Positions 14,701 through 46,553 of a stretch of 64,000 nt of DNA are shown here, piece after piece. The translations under genes and the position numbers were made by a program. Source of the stretch: Molossus alvarezi (Eukaryota > Chordata > Mammalia > Chiroptera > Molossidae); NCBI GenBank assembly GCA_037176705.1, contig CM073886.1, positions 19,763,501 through 19,827,500 of the forward strand. The letters are read 5' to 3'. The first letter of the stretch is position 1, and each line of letters starts with the position of its first letter. The notes under the pieces are model-generated. The model was not told the DNA's origin. It made no database searches and saw nothing but the letters and a program-made list of their open reading frames with translations.

Positions 14701-15800
14701 TAACATGGCAGCCTCAACATATTCTCCCATCACTCTGTTGGGGTCCCTGGGAATTGCCGTTCTTCCTTGGGGCTGTGCTTAGCCAGCTCTGAGGACAGGA
14801 GGTCACCAACGTGCCTGGCATGTCTGTTGCAAGAGCAGAGCCGGAGTCCACGGCTCCCCTAATAACCTTGTGTGTAAATCGTAGTGTCACACAAGGGCGT
14901 GTGCAGAAATTAGCATTTGAAAAGCAGCCTCCTTGCTTTCAGTTTGAGCTGACATGGTCCCTTTTCCTCCGTGGAAATGAAATTTATTAATCATAATAAA
15001 ACGATCAGATTCTGAAGGTAGAGGTCACCCTGAGGAGAAAAGGCGCCTGCTCGTTCACCAGGAATAGTTCAGCGCCGTTGTATTTTTCTTCCGCCCTGGA
15101 AAAGAACATTGCCAACTGGTTATCTTGGGCTTTCCACAAAGGTTGAAGTTCTGCCCAGCGTTAAAACAAATAAGAATTCACAATTAAAGTTTGTGGGAGG
15201 AAAGGGTGGGAGCTACCAGTAGGTTGTCTCCCCCAAAGAGGAAAATTTTGCTACAGTTAAAATCATTCCTCAAATTTAAAAAATATAATAATAATTGCCC
15301 TGAATCTGCATCTTCACACTTGTTTTGAAGGAACACCATGTGATCGCATCACTTGGTGCATTGCCAAGGGTTTTCAGTTTGCTTTTGCAGTTTATGTCTT
15401 GTTCATACAACCAGCTTTGCCAGGTAAAAATGCCTTAAAAAGAATCCTATTCACAGGTGTTTTTTCCCCCTTTAGACTAATGACAACTTTACTTTCTCAT
15501 GAACTAAAAATCCATGGCAAAAATTATATCTCATTTCTTTACACGTATTCGTATCTACTTCTAATTATGGGGGTCAAGGCCTAGCTTTTATGAGTGACGT
15601 CCCCAAATAAATGATTTCTTCAAAAATGTCATCCTTGAACTTCCGGTCAAGATGGTGGCGTAGGTAAACGCGGTATCGCGTCCTCCCACAACCACATCAA
15701 AGTTACAACTAAACTAAAGAACAACCATCATTCAAAACCGCCTGAAATCAAGCTGAATGGAAGTCGTACAACTACGGAACTAAGAGGAAAAAAAAAGCAG

Positions 15801-16373
15801 CTACATCCAGACCGGTAGGACGGGCGGCGGCGCGAGGGGGGCGGCGGAGCGCGCAGCGGCGAGACGGGCTGGACCCACACCCAAGCGTGGTGGATAAAAA
15901 TCAGGAGGATCCCGCGGCTGGGAAGGTCCTTCCTGAGGACTGAGGGGTCCCCGTCCCACACTAGGTGCCCCGTTCAGGGTTCCAGTGCCAGGAAGAGAAG
16001 TCCCCATAACTTCTGGCTGGAAAAACCAGCAGAAACTGAGGCTCAGGGAGGCTGAAGCGGCTGGAGCCCCAGGCAGCTCCCTAAAGGGCCTGCGCACGGA
16101 CTTATCGGACTCTCTCCCTCTAAGCTCGGAGGGGAGGCAGCTCGAGGGGCACCAGAGACACACAGGGAAGAACTGAGCTGTTTGGCACTGGAGCGAGGGC
16201 TGGAGAGGGGCCTTCATCGGGGACAAACGTGCTGTAAGAGGCCTTTGTTCCTTTGGTGAGCCCTTCCCGGGGCGGCAGACAGAAGCCATATCTGGGACTC
16301 CAGCAACCTGGCTCGCACTGGTAGCCCCGCCCTGCTGACTCCCTGAGGCCCCGCCCCGCCCCGCCTCACACAA
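15801..16373 (-). other. antisense 190-codon frame in the HAL1 5' UTR
   Basis: A long antisense frame covers most of the HAL1 5' UTR. In the second copy the corresponding antisense frame persists in two overlapping pieces (40063-40491 and 40466-40732). Primate L1 has a known but unrelated antisense ORF0. No homology to it is claimed. GC-rich DNA often lacks stops by chance. Confidence 0.25.
15985..16176 (+). other. 63-codon ORF in the HAL1 5' UTR
   Basis: A sense open frame beginning MPGREVPITSGW upstream of ORF1. The same 63-codon frame is open, with seven amino-acid differences, in the other HAL1 copy at 40331-40522. No domain recognised. It may be an upstream ORF or only a chance frame in GC-rich sequence. 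Confidence 0.3.
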
Positions 16374-16533
16374 CTTTCAAGCTGTTGTCACTTGCTTAAC
16401 CATAGGATTGGCCGGTCTTGGAATCTGCTTCAGGTTTTTCCTAAATTCTTTCAAACGAGCAGCACCGGGTCTCAGCGAGCCCCATACCGCTCATTAAGTA
16501 ATACACAGAAACAAACACAGGGAGGCAGCCAAA

Positions 16534-17475
16534 ATGAGGATACAAAGAAACAGGTCCCAAATGAAAGAACAGAACAAAACCCCAATAAAAGAACTAAGCG
16601 AAAGGGAGATAAGCAACCTAACAGATACTGAGTTCAAAATACTGCTTATAAGGATGCTCAATGAACTTGGTGAGAACCTCAGTGAACTTAGGGAGGGCAT
16701 CAAGAGCATAAAAAAGTACCAGTTAGAAATCATGGATACACAGTTAGAATTAAAGGAGGCATTAACTGAAATAAAGAATAATTTACACAGCTTCAATAAT
16801 AGAGTATGTAGATCCAAGGAGCAAACCATCGATTTGGAATATAAGGAAGCAAAAAATCCCCAATCAGAAGAGCAAAAAGAAAAAAGAATCCAAAAAAATG
16901 AGGATAGAGTAAGGAGCCTCTGGGATAACTTCAAGCGTGCCAACATTCGCATCTTGGGGGTGCCCGAAGGAGAAGAGAGAGAACAAGAAATCGAAAACCT
17001 GTTTGAAACAATAATGGCAGAAAACTTTCCTAACTTGGTGAAGGAAACAGACATACAAGTCCAGGAAGCACAGAGAGTCCCAAACAAGATGAACCCCAAG
17101 AGGCACACACCAAGACACATCATCATCAAAATGCAAAAGGTTCAAGACAAAGAGAGAATATTAAAAGCAGCAAGAGAAAGGCAGATAGTTACCTACAAGG
17201 GAGTACCCATTAGGCTGTCAGCTGATTTCTCAAAAGAAACTTTGCAGGCCAGAAGGGAGTGGCAAGAAATATTTAGAGTGATGAAAACCAAGAACCTACA
17301 ACCAAAATTACTCTATCCTGCAAAGCTGTCATTTAGAATCGATGGACATACAAAAACTTTCCCAGACAAGAAAAAGTTAAAGGAGTTCATCACCACCAAA
17401 CCATTATTATATGAAATGATGAAGGGTCTTTTTGAAGAAAAAGATAAAATGTATGAACAAACAAAATGGCAATGA
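16534..17475 (+). CDS. HAL1 ORF1 protein (L1 ORF1p-like RNA chaperone), open
   Basis: 313 codons without interruption, ATG in context aaaATGa, stop TGA at 17473. L1 ORF1p binds element RNA as a trimer and is needed for retrotransposition. This one has the same parts. A basic N-terminus is followed by a heptad-rich coiled coil (roughly residues 30-128). An RRM-like domain begins with RILGVPEGE near residues 139-147 and includes RHIIIKM at 194-200. The C-terminal domain carries DFSKETLQARREW at 231-243 and YPAKLSFRID at 261-270. The length is close to that of mammalian L1 ORF1p (about 340). The open frame suggests recent insertion. The second copy at 40886 has a nonsense codon and a frameshift. 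It is not a host gene, and whether it is translated is unknown. Confidence 0.85.
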   Translation: MRIQRNRSQMKEQNKTPIKELSEREISNLTDTEFKILLIRMLNELGENLSELREGIKSIKKYQLEIMDTQLELKEALTEIKNNLHSFNNRVCRSKEQTIDLEYKEAKNPQSEEQKEKRIQKNEDRVRSLWDNFKRANIRILGVPEGEEREQEIENLFETIMAENFPNLVKETDIQVQEAQRVPNKMNPKRHTPRHIIIKMQKVQDKERILKAARERQIVTYKGVPIRLSADFSKETLQARREWQEIFRVMKTKNLQPKLLYPAKLSFRIDGHTKTFPDKKKLKEFITTKPLLYEMMKGLFEEKDKMYEQTKWQ

Positions 17476-17817
17476 ATGCATATCTATCAACAATGGAATC
17501 TACAAACAAAATGAACAGGAAGAACAGAAACATTCTCATAGATACAGAGAACAATTTGGTGGTTGCCAGTTGGGAAGGGGATTGGGGGAATGGGTGAAAA
17601 AGGTGAAGGGATTAAGAAGCACAAATTCATTGCTAGACTGACAAACCTCAAAGGGAAAGGGGTTGGGAGGGTGGGAAGAAATAAACCAAAGAACTTATAT
17701 ACATAACCAATGGACACAGACAATAATGTGGGAAAAGGTGGGAGGGGGGCGGGAGGGGGGAGGAGGAGGTCAATGGGGGAAAAATGTGGAACATCTGTAA
17801 TACATTTTACATCCAAC

Positions 17818-17823
17818 AATAAA
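17818..17823 (+). terminator. HAL1 poly(A) signal
   Basis: AATAAA just before the element's poly(A) tract, in the same orientation as RBFOX1 transcription, so it could also act as an intronic poly(A) site. Confidence 0.5.
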
Positions 17824-17850
17824 GATTTGGAAAAAAAAAAAAAAAAAAAA

Positions 17851-17884
17851 TATCCTCAGGTGAGGATTAAAAAAAAAAAAAAAA
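17851..17884 (+). mobile_element. Ves SINE 3' tail joined to HAL1
   Basis: tatcctcaggtgaggatt plus an A run, identical in type to the terminal hairpin and tail of the Ves SINEs in this window, sits between the HAL1 poly(A) and the shared target duplication. Only the last 18 bp of a SINE are present. Confidence 0.6.
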
Positions 17885-19044
17885 AAAAATGTCATCCTTC
17901 TTCTTATTTTAGCACACCCTCTGTCTTAGACTTGCATGGTTTTCCTCCCAGAGGGAGGGGTCTTTGAAGGCCATTTCTGATGAGCTCAAGGACTGGAGGG
18001 TGTCCCAAGGAATGAAACACAAGGGGGAGGGTTGACGTTTGTTTCACTGAGAGATTCCCCCTAGAAAAGAAACATCCCTTCGCATCACTGCTTTTGAGGA
18101 TCAGGTGAACACAGTGTGACAAAGCTGAAAGCCTCATCTGGATTATTTGGACGTGGTCTCTTGGAAACAGGCAAGGAGGGCTTGGGAATAAGACATGTCC
18201 AGTGCGAGCCGGCGGAATGTTTTCACTGCCTAAAGTGTGACTTGGAGCCCGGGAGTTAGAGAGCTCTTCGGCCGGCTTCTTCCCCTTTCCCAGGCTCTGA
18301 GGTGTAAGCAATCATGCCAGACTCATCCAGTAAATTTTTATTCACCAACCCTGGATCAAGAAGATTGGGAACAAAATGGGGAAGAGAACGGGCAGGAGAG
18401 GAATAAAGCAAATGTGAATGAAACTCCAAGAGCTGGGAGGTGGCTTCATGTTGGCAGTAGCTGGTAGCTCAGACCATTTCCTCCCGCCTTGTTCCTTCGT
18501 TATTTAAGGGAAAGTCCAAGGGTCACAAACTGTTGATAGCCCACACCGATTCCCTTTGGTGACTGGCACACCCATTCCCCCAGCTGCTGTGAGTGTTGGT
18601 CGCTAATGGTGCTCAAGTGTTCCCTTCTTCAGAGAATTACCCTCTGCCCAAGAAAGTCGCTTCCACTCAGAAGTTCTCCTCTAGCCGTCAGGGAAACCCA
18701 CAGCTAATGTTTAACATACTCAAGCGTTGAAAAACCAACCCTTTTGCCTCCAGGTGGGATGAATTCTGGGGAGACCCATGGGATCAGGTGAAAGCAAGTC
18801 TCTAGCTCAGACCATTTCTCTTGTTTCCCTTGCTCTGGAACTGCCCGCCTCTCTCGCCTTCTCCTTCTCCACATGCACAAGAGTCTCTCTGCCAGGCTCT
18901 TCTTCCAGGGAACCTACGTTAAGATGGCATCTCAGCTTTGGTCATTAATGACAGAGCAGTGTTCAAACTATCTCCAAGAAGATATCTGGCAGGTCCTTTA
19001 AGTCAGGGTGCATGCTTACCCTTACTTGATAGAGAGAGTTCCGG

Positions 19045-25696: not shown

Positions 25697-25945
25697 CCCT
25701 GGCCGGTTTGCTCAGCGGTTAGAGCGTCAGCCTGAGGACCAATGAGTCACAAGTTTGATTCCAGTCGGGTACGAAGAGCACGTACCTCGGTTGCAGTTCT
25801 TCCCTGGCCCTGACCAGGGTCGTGTGGGAGGCAACTAGTCAATGTGTGTCTCTCTCTCTCTCCCTCCCTCCCACTCTATCAGAAGAGAAATAGAACAATA
25901 TCCTCGGGTGAGGATTAAAAATAGTAATAATAACAATACAAAAAT
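25697..25945 (+). mobile_element. Ves-type SINE (hairpin-tailed subtype)
   Basis: Starts ccctggccggtttgctcagc, with A and B boxes for RNA polymerase III, a 'gcacgtacctcggttgcag' middle, a TCTC tract, 'ccactctatcagaag', and the terminal tcctcgggtgagga hairpin before an A-rich tail. Target duplication atgtgaggctag at 25685-25696 and 25946-25957. Confidence 0.9.
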
Positions 25946-37698: not shown

Positions 37699-38684
37699 AT
37701 GTGGGCCCACCCAGGCTCATCCAAACCCAGTAGAGGGATCCACAAACAGCAGAACACCAACACCCACAGGAAAAATTTGGAAGGCTCCAAAACCCACCAA
37801 GATAGCCAAAATGGTGAAACAAAAAAACAATCCCAAATGAACGAACAGGAGAACTCTATCAAAGATGAGATAAATGAAATGCAGTTAAGCAAATTATCAG
37901 AGGTAGAGTTCAGAGCCATGATCTTGAGGAAGCTCAACAGCATGAGTAAGGACATCAGCACCATAAGTAAAGATACAGAAACATTGAAAACCAACCAAGT
38001 GGAAATGAGAAATGACATAGCAAGAATAAAGAACACATTGGAAGTACTAACCAGCAGAGTAAAGGAAGCTGAGGACCAGAACAGTGAATTAGAAGACAGG
38101 GTAGAAAAAAATCAACCAATCAGAAAACCAAAAGAAAAAAAAAATTAAAAAACAGGAAGATAGCTTAAGAGAAATGTGGGACAACTGAAAAAGTAATAAC
38201 ATTCGCATCCTAGGAGTCCCCAAAAAGGAAGAAAATGGACAAGGGTTAGAGAATATATTTGAAGAAATAGTTACAGAAAATTTTTCTAATTTGGTGAAGA
38301 AAGAAGGCATTCAAGTTCAAGAAGCACAGAGAGCCCTAAGTAAGAAGAACACAAACAGGCCCACATAGTAATTATAATTCCAAACATTAAAGACTAACAG
38401 AGAATCCTAAAGGCAGCAAAAGATAAGCAACAAGTTACGTACAACGGACACCCCATAAGGCTCTCAGCTGACTTTTCAACAGAACCACTACAGGCCAGAA
38501 GGGAATGGCAAGAAGTAATCAAGGTCATGAAAAACAAGGATCTGAATCCAAGACTACTCTATCCAGCAAGGCTATCATTCAAAATAGAAGGTCAAATAAA
38601 GAGCTTTCCAGACAAAAAAAAAGGCTAAGGGAATATATTAACACCAAACCAGCACTGCAAGATGTGCTAAAAGGATTGCTGTAA
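37699..38684 (+). pseudogene. L1 ORF1 remnant
   Basis: Opens MWAHPGSSKPSRG and reads 149 codons including a coiled-coil-like stretch. A frameshift in the A run near 38137-38150 and later nonsense codons break it. The downstream frames still show NIRILGVPKKEE and the RREWQE block of ORF1p. It is homologous to, but clearly different from, the HAL1 ORF1. Confidence 0.8.
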
Positions 38685-38734
38685 TTAGGAGAAGAAATAG
38701 GAAGAAAAATAGAACCACACAAAACAAAAATGGC

Positions 38735-38986
38735 TCCCTGGCCGGTTTGGTTCAGCGGTTAGAGCGTCGGCCTGCAGTCCAGAGAGACCCGGGTTCGGTT
38801 CCCGCTAAGGGCATGTGCCTCGGTTGCAGTTTGTCCCCGGCCCTGGTTGGTCGTGCGGGTGGCAGCCACTCAATGTGTCCCTTTCACATAGATGTTTCTC
38901 TCTCTCTCTCGTCCTCTCTCTCCCTCCCACTCTATCTGAACAAAAAATGGAAAAATGTCCTCGGGTAAGGAAAAAAAAAAAACAAG
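38735..38986 (+). mobile_element. Ves-type SINE between L1 ORF1 and ORF2
   Basis: Starts ccctggccggtttggttcag, ends aatgtcctcgggtaagg plus an A run. Target duplication of the type aaaacaaaaatggc (38721-38734 and 38987-39002, with one extra A). Confidence 0.9.
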
Positions 38987-40330
38987 AAAAACAAAAAATG
39001 GCAATAAATAAGTACATATCAATTATCACCTTAAATGTGAATGGTTTGAATGCTCTGATAAAAAGACACAGAGTAGCTGACTGGATAAGAAAGCATAACT
39101 CACATATATGTTGTTTACAGGAGACCCACCTCACAACAAAAGACTCACATAGGTTGAAAGTGAAGGGATGCAAAAAAAAAAAAAAAAAAAAAACTTTCAA
39201 GAAAACAGAAAGAAAAAAAAAGCTGGGGTAGCAATACTCATATCTGATAAAGTAGTTTTCAAAATGAAGTCCATACCTAGAGACAACAAAAGCCACTACA
39301 TAATATTGAAAGGATCTATCCAATAGGAAGATATAACCTTGGTAAACATATATGCACCCAATATATATTAAAAATCTTCTGGAGGACTTCAAAGGAGAAA
39401 TCAACAGCAACACAATCATAGCAGGGGACTTCAACACCCCACTAACATGACTGGATAGATCCTCTAGACAAAAAATTAGCAAGGAAACACAGACTCTAAA
39501 TGAAGCACTAGATCAGATGGATTTAATAGATATCTACAGAGAATTATACCCCAAAACTGCAAAATTTACATTCTTCTCAAGTGCACATGGGACATTCTCA
39601 AAGATAGACCACATGTTAGGGCACAAACTAAGTCTCTACAAGTTCAAGAAGATTGAAATCATATGAAGCATCTTCTCAGATCACAATGGCATGAAACTGG
39701 CAATCAATTGCAACAAGAACATGCAAAGACATTTGAAAACGTGGAGGCTAAATAGCATGTTACTGAACAATGATTGGGTTACCATGAACATCAAGGAAGA
39801 AATTAAAAACTCCCTGGAAACCAATGAAAATGAACACACAACAACACAAAATCTATGGGATGCAGCAAAAGCATTTCTGAGAAGGAAGTTCATAGCACTA
39901 CAAGCCTACTTCAAGAAGCAAGAAAAATTTATAATAGACTATCTAACCTCACAACTTAAAGAACTAGAAAACAAACAAAAAGAAAACTCAAGAGCAAGTA
40001 GAAGGAACAAAATAGTAAAGATCAGAGAAGAAATAAATGACATGGAGACATCAAACTTACAATTAAACTACAGAACAACCATCATTCAAACCGCCTGAAA
40101 TCATCCTGAATGGAAGTCCTACAACTACGGAATTAAAGCAGCAGCCACATCCAGACTGGTAGGAGGGGTGGAGGGGCGGAGGGGCGGAGGCGCGAGGTCC
40201 AGTGGCGAGCCGGGCTGGTCCCACACCCACGTGTGGCGGATAAAAATCAGGAGGATACCTCAACTGGGAAGGTCCTTCCTGAGGACTGAGGAGTCCTTGT
40301 TCCACACCAGGTGCCCCGCTCAGGGTTCCA

Positions 40331-40522
40331 GTGCCAGGAAGAGAAGTCCCCATAACTTCTGGCTGGAAAAACCAGCGGGAACTGAGGCTCAGGGAGGCTG
40401 AAGCAGCTGGAGCCCCAGGCAGCTCCATAAAGGGCCCGCGCACGGACTTATCGGACTCTCTCCCTCTAAGCTTGGAGGGGAGGCAGCTCAAGGGGCACCA
40501 GAGTCATACAGGGAAGAACTGA
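40331..40522 (+). other. 63-codon ORF in the HAL1 5' UTR (second copy)
   Basis: Same frame and length as 15985-16176, also open, with seven substitutions. Function unknown. Confidence 0.3.
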
Positions 40523-40885
40523 GCTGTTTGGCACTGGAACGAGGGCTGGAGAGGGGGCTTTCTCCAGGACAAACGTGCTATCAGAGGACTTTGTTCCTTT
40601 GGTGAGCCCTTCCCTGGGGCGGCAGAGAGCCGCCATATCTGGGACTCCAGCAACCTGGCTCACACTGGTAGCCCCGCCCTGGTGACTCCCTGAGGCCCCA
40701 CCCCGCCCCACCCAACTTTCAGGCCCACCCAAGCTGTTCCTACTTGCTTAACCATAGGATTGGCCTGTCTTGGATCCTGCTTCAGGTTTTTCCTAAATTC
40801 TTTCAAACGAGCAGCATCTGGTCTCAGCGAGCCCCATACCTCGCGTTAAGTAATACACAGAAACAAACACAGGGAGGCAGCCAAA

Positions 40886-41825
40886 ATGAGGAGACAAAGA
40901 AACAGGTCCCAAATGAAAGAACAGAACAAAACCCCAAGAAAAGAACTAAACAAAATGGAGCTAAGCAACCTAACAGATGCTGAGTTCAAAATACTGCTTA
41001 TAAGAATGCTCAATGAACTTAGCGAGAACCTCAGTGAACTTAGTGAGGGCCTCAAGAGCATAAAAAAGGACCAGTCAGAAATCATGGATGCACAGTCAGA
41101 ATTGAAGGAGACATTAACTGAAATAAAGAATAATTTACACAGCTTCAATAGTAGAGTATGTAAATTGAAGGAGCAAACCATCAATTTGGAATATAAGGAA
41201 GCAAAAAACGCCCAATCAGAACAGCAAAAGGAGAAAAGAATCCAAAAAAATGAGGATAGTGTAAGGAGCCTCTGGGACAACTTCAAGCGTGCCAACATTC
41301 ACATCTTGGGGGTGCCAGAAGGAGAAGAGCGAGAACAAGAAATCAAAAACCTGTTTTAAACAATAATAGCAGAAAACTTTCGTAACTTGGTGAAGGAAAC
41401 AGACATACAAGTCCAGGAAGCACAGAGAGTCCCAAACAAGATAAACCCCAAGAGGCCCACACCAAGACACATCATCATCAAAATGCAAAAGGTTCAAGAC
41501 AAAGAGAGAATCTTAAAAGCAGCAAGAGAAAGGCAGCTAGTTACCTACAAGGGAGTTTCCATAAGGCTGTCAGCTGATTTCTCAAAAGAAACTTTGCAGG
41601 CCAGAAGGGAGTGGCAAGAAATATTCAGTGATGAAAAGCAAGAACCTATAACCAAGATTACTCTATCCTGCAAAGCTGTCATTTAGAATCGATGTCCATA
41701 TAAAGACTTTCCCAGAGAAGAAAAAGTTAAAGGAGTTCATCTCCACCAAGCCGTTATTATATGAAATGATGAAGGGTCTTTTTGAAGAAAAAGATAAAAT
41801 ATATGAACAAACAAAATGGCAATGA
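40886..41825 (+). pseudogene. HAL1 ORF1 remnant
   Basis: Starts MRRQRNRSQMKEQ and reads 157 codons, to a nonsense TAA at 41357-41359 (a Glu codon in the other copy). A 2-bp deletion near 41626 then shifts the frame. The remainder matches the open copy's RRM and C-terminal blocks. Confidence 0.85.
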
Positions 41826-44800
41826 ATACGTATCTATTGACAATGGAATCTACAAACAAAATGAACAGGTAGAACAGAAACATTTTCATAGATACAGAGA
41901 ACATTTTGTTGGTTGCCAGATGGGAGGGGCGTTGAGGGAATGGGTGAAAAAGGTGAAGGGATTAAGAAGCACAAACTCATTGCTAGACTGACAAACCTCA
42001 AAGGGAAAGGGGTTGGGGGGGGGGAATAAACCAAAAAAACTTATATGCATAACCAATGGACACAGACAATAGTGTGGGAAAAGGCGGGAGGCAGGTGGGA
42101 GTGGGGAGGAGGGGGTCAATAGGGGAAAAATGTGGAACATCTGTAAGACATTTTACATTCAACAATAAAGATTAAAAAAAAAGAAGAAATAAATGACATG
42201 GAGACCAAAAAAACAATTCAAAGAATCAATGAAACAAAGAGCTGGTTATTTGAAAAGATAAATAAATTGATGAACCCTTAGATAGACTCACTAAGAAACA
42301 AAGAGAGAGAACCCAAATATATGATATCAGAAATGAAAGAGGAGAAATAATAACTGACACCAAAGAAATACAAAGGATTGTTAACAAATATTATGAACAA
42401 TTATATGGCAATGAATTCGACAATCTAAGTGAAATGGACAAATTTCTAGAAACACATAGTCTTCCAAAACTGGACCAGGAAGAGACAGAAAACTTGAACA
42501 GACCAATAACAACAGAAGAAACTGAAGATGTAATCAAGACTCTCCCAGCAAACAAAAGCCCAGGTAGCTTCACAGGGGAATTTTACCGAACATTCAAAGA
42601 AGAACTAATACCCATTCTCCTCAAACTATTTCAAAAAATCCAAGAAGAAAGAAGACTTCCAAACTTGTATGATGAGGCCAGCATAATTCTAATTCCAAAA
42701 TCAGAAAAAGACACTACAAAGAAAGAAAACTACAGGCAAATATCCCTGATGAACATAGATGCCAAAATCCTGAACAAAATACTAGCACATCGAATCTAGC
42801 AATACATCAAAAAAATTATTCATCATGACCAAGTGGGATTCATCCCAGGGATGCAAGGCTGGTACAATATTCATAAATCAAAAAATGTGATACACCACAT
42901 AAACAAAATGAAATTTAAAAAATCATATGATCATATCAATAGACAATGAAAAAGCATTCGACAAAAATCCAGCACCCATTTCTGATAAAAACACTCAGCA
43001 ATCTGGGAAGAGAGGAATCAAATCTCGACATAATAAAGGCCATATATGAAAGACCTACAGCCAACATCATACTCAATGGGCAAAAACTAAAAACATTTCC
43101 CTTAAGAACAGGAACAGGACAAGGATGCTCGCTTTCGCCACTCTTATTTAACATAGTACTAGAAGTCTTAGCCACAGCAACCAGACAGGAAAAAATAAAT
43201 CAAAGGGATCCTAATTGGAAAGGAGAAAGTGAAACTGTCTTTATTCGCAGATGACATAATATTATATGTAGAAAATCCCAAAGATTCCATCAAAAATCTA
43301 CTAGACTTAATAAATGAATTTGGCAAAGTAACAGGATACAAAATTAACGTCAAGAAATCAACGGCATTCTTATACACCAATGATGAACTAACTCAGAGAA
43401 AGAGAAACTAAAAAAACAATCCAATTTACCATCGTGGCAAAAAAAATTAAGATACCTAGGAATACACTTAACCAAAGAAATAAAGGACCTATTTGCAGAA
43501 AACTACAGGCCATTTAAAAAGAAAAAAATAGAGGAAGATATAAAAAAGTGGAAGCACATAACTTGTTCATGGATTGGAAGAATTAACATCATTAAAATGT
43601 CTATACCACCCAAAGCAATCTATAGATTCAATGCAATCCCCATCAAAATACCAACGACATACTTCACAGAACTAGAACAAATACTTCAAAAGTTCATATG
43701 GAACCAAAAAAGACCCTGAATAGCCACAGAAATCTTGAAAAAAAAGAACAAAGTTGGAGGGATCACATTACCAGATTTCAGGTTTTACTACAAAGCCACT
43801 GTAACCAAAACAACCTGGTACTGGCAAAATAACAGGCAGATACATCAATGGAACAGAATAGAGAACCCAGAAATGGACCCAAGACAATATGCTCAATTAA
43901 TATTTGACAAAGGGGGCAAGAGCATACAGTGGAGTAAAGACAGCCTCTGTAATAAATGGTGTTGGGAAAATTGGATAGCTACATGCAAAAAATGAAACTA
44001 GACCACCAACTTACACCATACACAAAATTAAACTCAAAATGGATCAAAGAGTTAGATGTGACTCATGAATCTATAAAAATCCTAGAAGAAAATGTAGGCA
44101 ACAAAATTTCAGACATCATACGCAGCAGAATTTTCACTGATACATCACATAAGGCAACAAAAACAAAGGAGAAAATGAACACATGGGACTACATCAAACT
44201 CAAAAGCTTCTGCACAGCAAAAGAATCAACCACCAAAATGGAAAGGCAACCCACTGTATGGGAGAGCATAATTGCCAATGATACATCAGATAAGGGGTTA
44301 ATTTAAAAAATATATAGAGTGCTCATACAACTCAACAAAAGGAAGACAAAGAACCCAATTAAAAAATGGGCAGAGGAACTAAATAGACACCTCTCCAAAC
44401 AGGACATACAAATGGCTAAGAGACATATGAAGAAATGTTTAACATCACTAATCAACAGACAAATGCAAATTAAAACAACAATGAGGTATCACCTCGCACC
44501 TGCCAGACTGGCCACCATCAACAAATCATCAAACAACAAGTGTTGGCGAGATTGTGGAGAAAAGGGGACTCTAGTACACTGCTGATGGAAATGCAGACTG
44601 GTGCAGCCACTATGGAAAACACTATGGTGTTACCTCAAAAAATTAAGAATTGAACTGCCATTTGATCCAGTGATCCCACTTCTAGGAATATACCCTAAGA
44701 AGCCTGAAACACCAATCAGAAAGAATATATGTACCCCTATGTTGATAGCAGCACTATTTACAATAGCTAAGATCAGGAAACAGCCCAAATGTCCATCAGT

Positions 44801-45672
44801 AGACGAATGGATAAAAAAGCAGTGGTACATATACACAATGGAGTACTATGCAGCTGTAAGAAAGAAAGATTTCTTATCCTTTGAGACGACATGAAGAGAC
44901 CTGGAGATTATTATCCTAAGCGAAACAAGCCAAGCAGAGAAAGACAAATATCACATGATCTCACTGATTTGTGGAATATAATGAACATAATGGTCTGAGA
45001 AATGGGGTAGTCCCAGAGATGTGGAAGTGGGGTACAGACTGACAATCCCCAGAAGAGGGGGTGGGGAGAGAGAGATAAACCACAGAACTTATATGCATGT
45101 ATATATGAACAATGGACATGGACAACAAAGCTGGAAACAGGGCAGGGAGTGAGGGGGGCGCAGGTATCAGTGGGGGGAAAAGGAGAAACATCTGTAACAA
45201 TAATTAATTAATTAATTAATTTTTAAAAATATAGAGAAAACAAGTTAGGGTGTTGTATAAGGGAATATGTTCATGACCTTGCAGTAAGCAATGTTTCTTA
45301 GAACACAAAAACACTATATAAAAAAAATAGGACTGATCAAAATTTAAAATCTTTGTCTATCAAAAGGCACTAAAAATAACATAACTAGGTAAAATGTAGA
45401 CTAAGAGAAAATAGTCACAACACATATTCAGGACTTGTATCCGGAATATATTTTTAAATGGGCAAGAGAATTCATCAGACATAAAAAAAGAAAGTATACT
45501 TATGTTCAATCAACTCAAGAAAAAGTGTCTAACATCATTATCCACCAGAGAAATGCAAATTAAAACCAATCTAAGACATTGCTAGCATGGCTACAATGGA
45601 AAATGACCACCCCCCACACACATGATAGTGAAACTGGAATAATTCCCACACACTGCTCTATAAAGCATAAAA

Positions 45673-46553
45673 GACCTAAAAAGACACCTCTCCAAATGGG
45701 ACATACAAATGCCCAAGAGACATATGAAAAAATGCTCAATGTCACTAACAATCAGAGAGATGCAAATTAAAACAACAATGAGGTATCATCTCACACCTGC
45801 CAGAATGGCCGCCATCAACAAATCATCAAACAACAAGTGTTGGCGAGGGTGTGGAGAAAAGGGGACTCTAGTACACTGCTGATGGGAATGCAGACTGGTG
45901 CGGCCACTATGGAAAACAATATGGTGTTTTCTCAAAAAATTAAGAATTGAACTGCCATTTGATCCAGTGATTTCACTTCTAAGGAATATATCTGAAGAAG
46001 CCTGAAACACCAATCAGAAAGAATATATGTACGCCTATGTTTATAGCAGCACTGTTTACAATAGCTAAGATCTGGAAACAGCCCAAGTGTGGATAAACAA
46101 GCTGTGCTACATGTACACAATGGATACTATGCAGCTGTAGGAAAGAAAGACCTCTTACCCTTTGAGACAACATGGAGGGACCTGGAGAGTATTATGCTAA
46201 GCACATTAAACCAGTCAGAGAACGACAAGTATCACGTGATCTCACTTATTTGTAAAATATAATGAACAAAATAAGGTGATAAACAAAATAGACCCAGAGA
46301 CATAGAAGTAGGGTTCAGAATGACAAACTTCATAGGAGGGGAGGAAGAGATAAACCAAAGAACTTATGCATATAAGCATAACCAATGGACATGAACAACA
46401 ATGGTGGGGTGGGGGGTGGAGCGGGAATGGGAGGAGGGTGTCAATGGGGGAAAAAAGAGAAACATCTGTAACAAAAATAAATTAATTAAATTTAAAAAAT
46501 AATCTTAAAAAATAAAAAAATAAATATATCCATATTTTTTAAATTAAAAAATG
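45673..46553 (+). mobile_element. 5'-truncated young L1 (3' end only)
   Basis: Begins in the last part of ORF2 (aaaaagacacctctccaaat) and continues through the 3' UTR to an A/T-rich tail. Target duplication aaagcataaaa at 45662-45672 and 46554-46564. Closely similar to the 3' end of the L1 at 36091-45226. Confidence 0.9.

What the first reader, a model, noticed from the sequence alone, without database searches (positions are those of the whole stretch)
15637..17884. HAL1-type ORF1-only retrotransposon with an open 313-codon ORF1
The element has a 5' UTR, open ORF1, 3' UTR, poly(A) and a perfect 15-bp target duplication, but no ORF2. HAL1 elements are known ORF1-only L1 derivatives. An uninterrupted ORF1 and intact flanks suggest recent mobilisation by L1 ORF2p supplied in trans, and possibly continued activity in this bat lineage.
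Basis: partly seen in the sequence, partly recalled or inferred. Interest (0 to 1): 0.75.

Follow-up and report, generated by a model that had tools for sequence, protein, structure and literature searches.

The report
Half-L1 retrotransposon copy in a bat
This is a well-preserved copy of a known kind of jumping gene, an L1 element that has lost its copying enzyme but kept its RNA-binding protein gene; it has at least one sister copy nearby, and its tail carries a scrap of a different bat jumping element.

Summary
In detail: 15637-17884 is an inserted unit with an open 313-codon L1 ORF1, no ORF2, an L1-type 3' UTR, poly(A) and a perfect 15-bp duplication. So this is a HAL1-type family, not a private deletion. 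Corrections: ORF2 is lost at about 17490-17494, not 17475/17476; its first codons (from 17466, overlapping ORF1's stop) and last few bases remain. The tail is A20 + TATCCTCAGGTGAGGATT + A21; that 18-mer is the 3' end of tRNA-type (Ves) SINEs in the window, so the insertion looks chimeric. Recency is partly supported: copy 1's private amino-acid changes avoid conserved sites (4 of 21), those of the dead copy do not (9 of 14), suggesting a young insertion (about 1%, up to 2.4%) from a lineage with a selected ORF1; N:S ratios do not confirm this. Present activity is not shown. The closest ORF1 relative is from Molossus. HAL1 elements are long known; this is a new member. Copy number and polymorphism are unmeasured: the genome search did not complete.

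The parts
15622..15636 (.). 5' target-site duplication AAAAATGTCATCCTT
   Evidence: perfect 15/15 match to 17885-17899
15637..16533 (+). 5' UTR, 897 nt, GC 57.5%, CpG o/e 0.65; L1-like 5' end with AAGATGG core at 15649 (recalled as the L1 YY1-type site)
   Evidence: BLASTN hits elsewhere in the window only in copy 2, apart from one that overlaps its last 7 nt and runs into ORF1
16534..17475 (+). ORF1, 313 codons: predicted long helix 31-102 (coiled coil), RRM-like and C-terminal domains, C-terminal extension
17466..17490 (+). remnant of ORF2 start, overlapping the ORF1 stop (MAMNAYLS...)
   Evidence: aligned to window L1 ORF2 start at 38990-39022; 46 of 2000 shuffles score as high
17491..17830 (+). 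L1-type 3' part: from the last ORF2 codons (TGGAATCTA, 17494-17502) through the 3' UTR, polypurine G-rich run 17751-17769, AATAAA at 17818
   Evidence: 3' UTR similar to two L1 3' ends in the window, 74% and 70%; ORF2 end ...MISLICGI* read at 44901-44985
17831..17850 (+). first poly(A), A20
17851..17868 (+). TATCCTCAGGTGAGGATT, 3' end of a Ves-type SINE inside the insertion
   Evidence: same end, with up to 5 mismatches to TATCCTCGGGTGAGGATT, on SINE-like copies at 25899, 34440, 38956 (+) and 58098, 1937, 853 (-)
17869..17884 (+). second poly(A) (continues into the five A's of the duplication)
17885..17899 (.). 3' target-site duplication
40026..40049 (.). 5' target-site duplication of copy 2 (24 bp, in an older L1 ORF2)
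40050..42181 (+). second copy of the same element: 59 nt shorter at the 5' end, ORF1 with 2 stop codons and a 2-nt deletion, plain poly(A)
   Evidence: 90.8% BLASTN identity through the junction
42182..42205 (.). 3' target-site duplication of copy 2

Best explanation
A HAL1-type, non-autonomous L1 derivative. An L1 of this bat lineage lost nearly all of ORF2, leaving its first codons and last few bases, and the shortened element then spread as a family. Its RNA makes ORF1p; the endonuclease and reverse transcriptase (ORF2p) came in trans from full-length L1s (inferred, not shown). Copy 1 was inserted by target-primed reverse transcription (read from its anatomy). Reverse transcription probably began on the 3' end of a Ves SINE RNA and moved to the HAL1 RNA within shared A tracts, leaving an A20-Ves end-A tail (inferred). 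The source lineage's ORF1 was probably under constraint for part of copy 1's history (inferred from where its changes fall).
For: Unit bounded by a perfect duplication; open ORF1 with L1 ORF1p domains; same junction in a second, separately inserted copy; L1 3' UTR homology and ORF2-start remnant; no other coding match; copies 1 and 2 and Molossus P0001 form one clade, support 98/93, inside a 5-row clade with two more Molossus proteins, 100/99, apart from Myotis and Cnephaeus ORF1; ORF1 has fewer changes than UTR rates predict, 57 v 78.9, P=0.006; copy 1 private changes at conserved sites 4 of 21 v 181 of 296 sites, p=1e-4, dead copy 9 of 14; Ves end inside the duplications.
Against: The N:S ratio is not clearly below neutral (37 N + 2 stops: 18 S, expected 2.8:1, p=0.22). 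Copy 1 carries more private amino-acid changes than the dead copy (22 v 14; 16 v 14 if polarised by P0001 alone). The copy 1 v copy 2 contrast depends on the threshold (Fisher p=0.012, 0.053, 0.090 at 0.5, 0.7, 0.9), and comes from copy 1's excess at variable sites (18 v 5, p=0.011) rather than from conserved sites alone (4 v 9, p=0.27). At near-invariant columns copy 1 departs at 2 of 76 and copy 2 at 6, but 29 other relatives range from 0 to 16, so this does not separate live from dead. The ORF2-start match has a shuffle frequency of 46 in 2000. Supply of ORF2p in trans was not tested.
Confidence: 0.9

Rival explanations
1. Private deletion: a normal full-length L1 inserted here and later lost ORF2 at this locus only.
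Against: The same junction recurs in a second copy with different flanks and its own 24-bp duplication.
Confidence: 0.02
2. Old, dead family: the open frame is luck, and the family stopped moving long ago.
For: 8.4% difference between the copies; 22 private amino-acid changes in copy 1; near-neutral N:S; 0.28 chance of no stop after 30 substitutions; the closest named genome, Molossus molossus, is reported without LINE ORFs intact for RT and endonuclease (PMC10239488, passages).
Against: Copy 1's changes avoid conserved sites; no frame shift; perfect duplication; long pure A tracts; more CpG kept in the stretch of 5' UTR that both copies have (o/e 0.61 v 0.39), though the paired CpG count is not significant.
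Confidence: 0.3
3. Tail by 3' transduction: the source HAL1 sat inside a Ves SINE's internal A tract and its transcript read through into the SINE end, which was then copied along.
For: Also explains A20-Ves end-A inside the duplications.
Against: Needs a source copy in that exact place; template switching between two A-rich RNAs needs none. Chimeras of L1 with other RNAs, Alu among them, are documented (PMC13174262, passages). The choice was not tested.
Confidence: 0.35
4. Domesticated ORF1 gene, as in L1TD1.
For: Open ORF1; changes avoid conserved sites.
Against: Flanked by an intact duplication and poly(A); second copy dead.
Confidence: 0.02

Closest known systems
HAL1 (half-L1) retrotransposons (Smit 1999; Bao and Jurka 2010, both recalled and seen only as citations in other papers, e.g. 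PMC5753468)
   Same: ORF1 only, L1 3' end, poly(A), target-site duplications, more than one copy; said to arise independently several times in mammals (PMC5753468, passages)
   Different: ORF1 here runs into the ORF2 start codon, with a C-terminal extension for which a search with residues 268-313 gave one candidate, Molossus P0001 (that search needs shared 5-residue words); copy 1 has a Ves SINE end in its tail. Other HAL1 sequences were not compared.
Full-length L1 of bats
   Same: ORF1p domains and 3' UTR
   Different: No ORF2 here, so no reverse transcriptase or endonuclease
3'-LINE-1 chimeras (U6/L1, Alu/L1; PMC13174262, passages)
   Same: Two RNAs joined in one insertion with a duplication
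   Different: There the L1 is the 3' part; here the L1 derivative is the 5' part and a SINE end is 3'
SVA-like composite elements (recalled)
   Same: Non-autonomous, joined from parts, moved by L1
   Different: Only 1 of the 2 copies seen here has the SINE end; no sign that it is a heritable part of the family

Membership tests
HAL1 (half-L1) | encodes an L1 ORF1p | tested here: met
HAL1 (half-L1) | lacks ORF2 | tested here: met
   only ORF2's first codons and last few bases between the duplications
HAL1 (half-L1) | L1-derived 3' end with poly(A) | tested here: met
HAL1 (half-L1) | target-site duplication | tested here: met
   15/15 and 24/24 in the 2 copies
HAL1 (half-L1) | multi-copy family sharing one junction | tested here: met
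   2 copies in this window; genome-wide number not known, the genome search not answered
HAL1 (half-L1) | mobilised in trans by L1 ORF2p | not testable with these tools
   inferred; copy 1's site reads TTTTT/GA on the cut strand, close to the TT/AAAA-type motif, copy 2's reads TTCT/CT, less so (sequence)
HAL1 (half-L1) | recent or current activity | tested here: inconclusive
autonomous L1 | ORF2 with endonuclease and reverse transcriptase | tested here: not met
L1TD1-type domesticated gene | host gene without insertion hallmarks | tested here: not met

The most novel reading that the evidence does not exclude
The ORF1-only lineage has outlived its own full-length parent: its ORF1 stayed under selection while functional ORF2 copies became rare or vanished in free-tailed bats, and copy 1 is an early step toward a composite HAL1-Ves element that uses a SINE tail for copying.
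Probability: 0.06. Interest if true: 0.6.

Novelty: new member of a known kind. Interest (0 to 1): 0.33.

Why it matters
HAL1 lineages are natural tests of what ORF1p does without linked ORF2p. If ORF1 is selected in a lineage that depends on ORF2p from elsewhere, ORF1p must help its own RNA in cis. Free-tailed bats may be a good place to ask: in Molossus molossus SINEs are reported as 80% of insertions younger than 25 million years (PMC9409754, passages), but no LINE ORFs with intact RT and endonuclease were found (PMC10239488, passages). That the window comes from a free-tailed bat is inference.

Tried and rejected
Genome-wide copies: the genome search (own) was asked 12 times with the same request and never answered. 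Junction pattern in viral contigs: 0 matches; ORF1 in viral contigs and genome contigs: 3 and 83 pattern stretches, none a relative by tblastn. Rfam at gathering thresholds over 15500-18000: no match. N:S ratios as proof of selection on ORF1: not significant. CpG decay as a relative clock (sites CG in one copy, TG/CA in the other; copy 2 decayed v copy 1 decayed): 5' UTR 12 v 4 (p=0.077), ORF1 4 v 2, 3' UTR 1 v 2, all 17 v 8 (p=0.11). Near-invariant columns as a live/dead test: uninformative. Literature: no paper on HAL1 in free-tailed bats appeared in the rows listed by searches; several lists were capped (20 of 42, 20 of 27, 13 of 13, 3 of 3, 15 of 49, 4 of 4, 10 of 1155, 10 of 22). Bao and Jurka 2010 and Wichman 2019 are not held, and Repbase was not searched, so a bat HAL1 entry may well exist. 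Private deletion and domesticated gene were rejected on copy 2 and the duplications.

Full report
What is there. The stretch 15637-17884 is one inserted unit of 2248 nt. It is framed by a perfect 15-bp duplication, AAAAATGTCATCCTT, at 15622-15636 and 17885-17899; the five A's could be poly(A), so 10 nt are certain. It has a GC-rich 5' UTR of 897 nt, an open ORF1 of 313 codons at 16534-17475, an L1-type 3' UTR with AATAAA at 17818 and a G-rich polypurine run at 17751-17769, and a poly(A). ORF1 carries the L1 RRM-like and C-terminal domains, matches human L1 ORF1p structures, and is predicted to have a long helix at 31-102, then the two globular domains (mean pLDDT 74.5, pTM 0.48). The best heptad pattern near the N-terminus was not reached by any of 500 shuffles of the first 131 residues. 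Five other frames in or across the element have no Pfam match up to E=0.1.

Where ORF2 went. ORF1 in fact runs into the start of ORF2: the ATG at 17466 overlaps the stop, and its frame reads MAMNAYLST, where the L1 at 38998 in the window reads MAINKYISI. The local alignment runs to 17490; 46 of 2000 shuffles score as high, so position and frame carry part of the argument. On the other side, TGGAATCTA at 17494 fits the last codons of L1 ORF2, whose end in the window reads ISLICGI and stop. So nearly the whole of ORF2 is missing, with its first codons and last few bases left.

A family, not a private loss. BLASTN of the element against the window found a second copy at 40048-42194, 90.8% identical through the junction; between its duplications it spans 40050-42181. 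It lies in the ORF2 of an older L1, has its own perfect 24-bp duplication, lacks 59 nt at its 5' end, and its ORF1 has 2 stop codons and a 2-nt deletion. Copy number in the genome is unknown, because the genome search did not answer in 12 tries.

Relatives. Of 2432 proteins found (120 listed), the best is Molossus molossus P0001, 87% identical over 92%. In a 22-row tree both copies and P0001 form a clade (98/93) inside a group with two other Molossus proteins (100/99); the Cnephaeus and most Myotis rows form a separate clade (100/100) together with one row of unnamed source, and one Myotis row lies further out. A search with the last 46 residues gave one candidate, P0001, but that search needs shared 5-residue words. 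I did not see P0001's DNA, so it could belong to a full-length L1. The host is thus probably a free-tailed bat or near kin; this is inference.

How old. The copies differ by 178 of 2124 sites (8.4%), less in ORF1 (57 of 940) than in the 5' UTR (85 of 827) or 3' UTR (36 of 351). ORF1 has fewer changes than UTR rates predict (57 v 78.9, P=0.006), but the N:S ratio is near neutral (p=0.22). Polarised by relatives, copy 1 has 22 private amino-acid changes and copy 2 has 14; with P0001 alone it is 16 and 14, with 7 of 37 undecided. At sites where at least half of the relatives agree (181 of 296 sites), copy 1 has 4 of 21 and copy 2 has 9 of 14; copy 1 is depleted (p=1e-4), copy 2 is not (p=0.69); the contrast is p=0.012, and 0.053 and 0.090 at stricter thresholds. 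It comes mainly from variable sites (18 v 5, p=0.011), not from conserved sites alone (4 v 9, p=0.27) (the 18 counts one site with too few relatives to be scored). At near-invariant columns copy 1 departs at 2 of 76 and copy 2 at 6, but 29 relatives range from 0 to 16, so that test decides nothing. With mammal-like rates recalled as 2.2-2.7e-9 per year, that is about 4 million years, up to about 11. CpG decay agrees in direction only. If all 22 changes were neutral the figure would be 3.2%.

The tail. After A20 come TATCCTCAGGTGAGGATT and 21 A's, five of them in the duplication. A scan with up to 5 mismatches to TATCCTCGGGTGAGGATT gave 11 rows: 2 are this element read on both strands, 6 close SINE-like copies after 2 to 6 A's, and 3 are not SINE-like by eye. 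I name the SINEs Ves, and tRNA-type, from recall. Copy 2 lacks this end. The simplest account is that reverse transcription started on a SINE RNA and jumped to the HAL1 poly(A); transduction from a source copy inside a SINE is the rival. L1 chimeras with other RNAs are documented, with the L1 as the 3' part (PMC13174262, passages); here the order is the other way round.

Verdict. A new member of a known kind. HAL1 elements are described as ORF1-only L1 derivatives with poly(A) and duplications that depend on L1 enzymes (PMC5322556, PMC5753468, passages), and HAL1 families under 1% diverged are listed in marmoset and guinea pig (PMC3183009, passages). Continued activity remains open.

Noticed in passing
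17831-17884: Tail contains the 3' end of a Ves-type SINE between two A tracts, inside the target-site duplications: a HAL1-SINE chimera.
   Followed up: partly
about 37800-45200: An older L1 with broken ORF1 and ORF2 carries two nested insertions, a Ves-type SINE near the ORF1-ORF2 junction (about 38735-38973) and HAL1 copy 2 in ORF2; another L1 3' end follows at about 45700-46490.
   Followed up: partly
P0021 (Molossus molossus protein): Starts as ORF1 of this lineage and ends in LICGI, the end of L1 ORF2: perhaps a second, larger internal deletion, or a spliced gene prediction.
   Followed up: no
P0002, P0004 (Cnephaeus nilssonii proteins): Each holds two ORF1-like stretches one after the other; may be tandem ORF1 or an annotation effect.
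   Followed up: no
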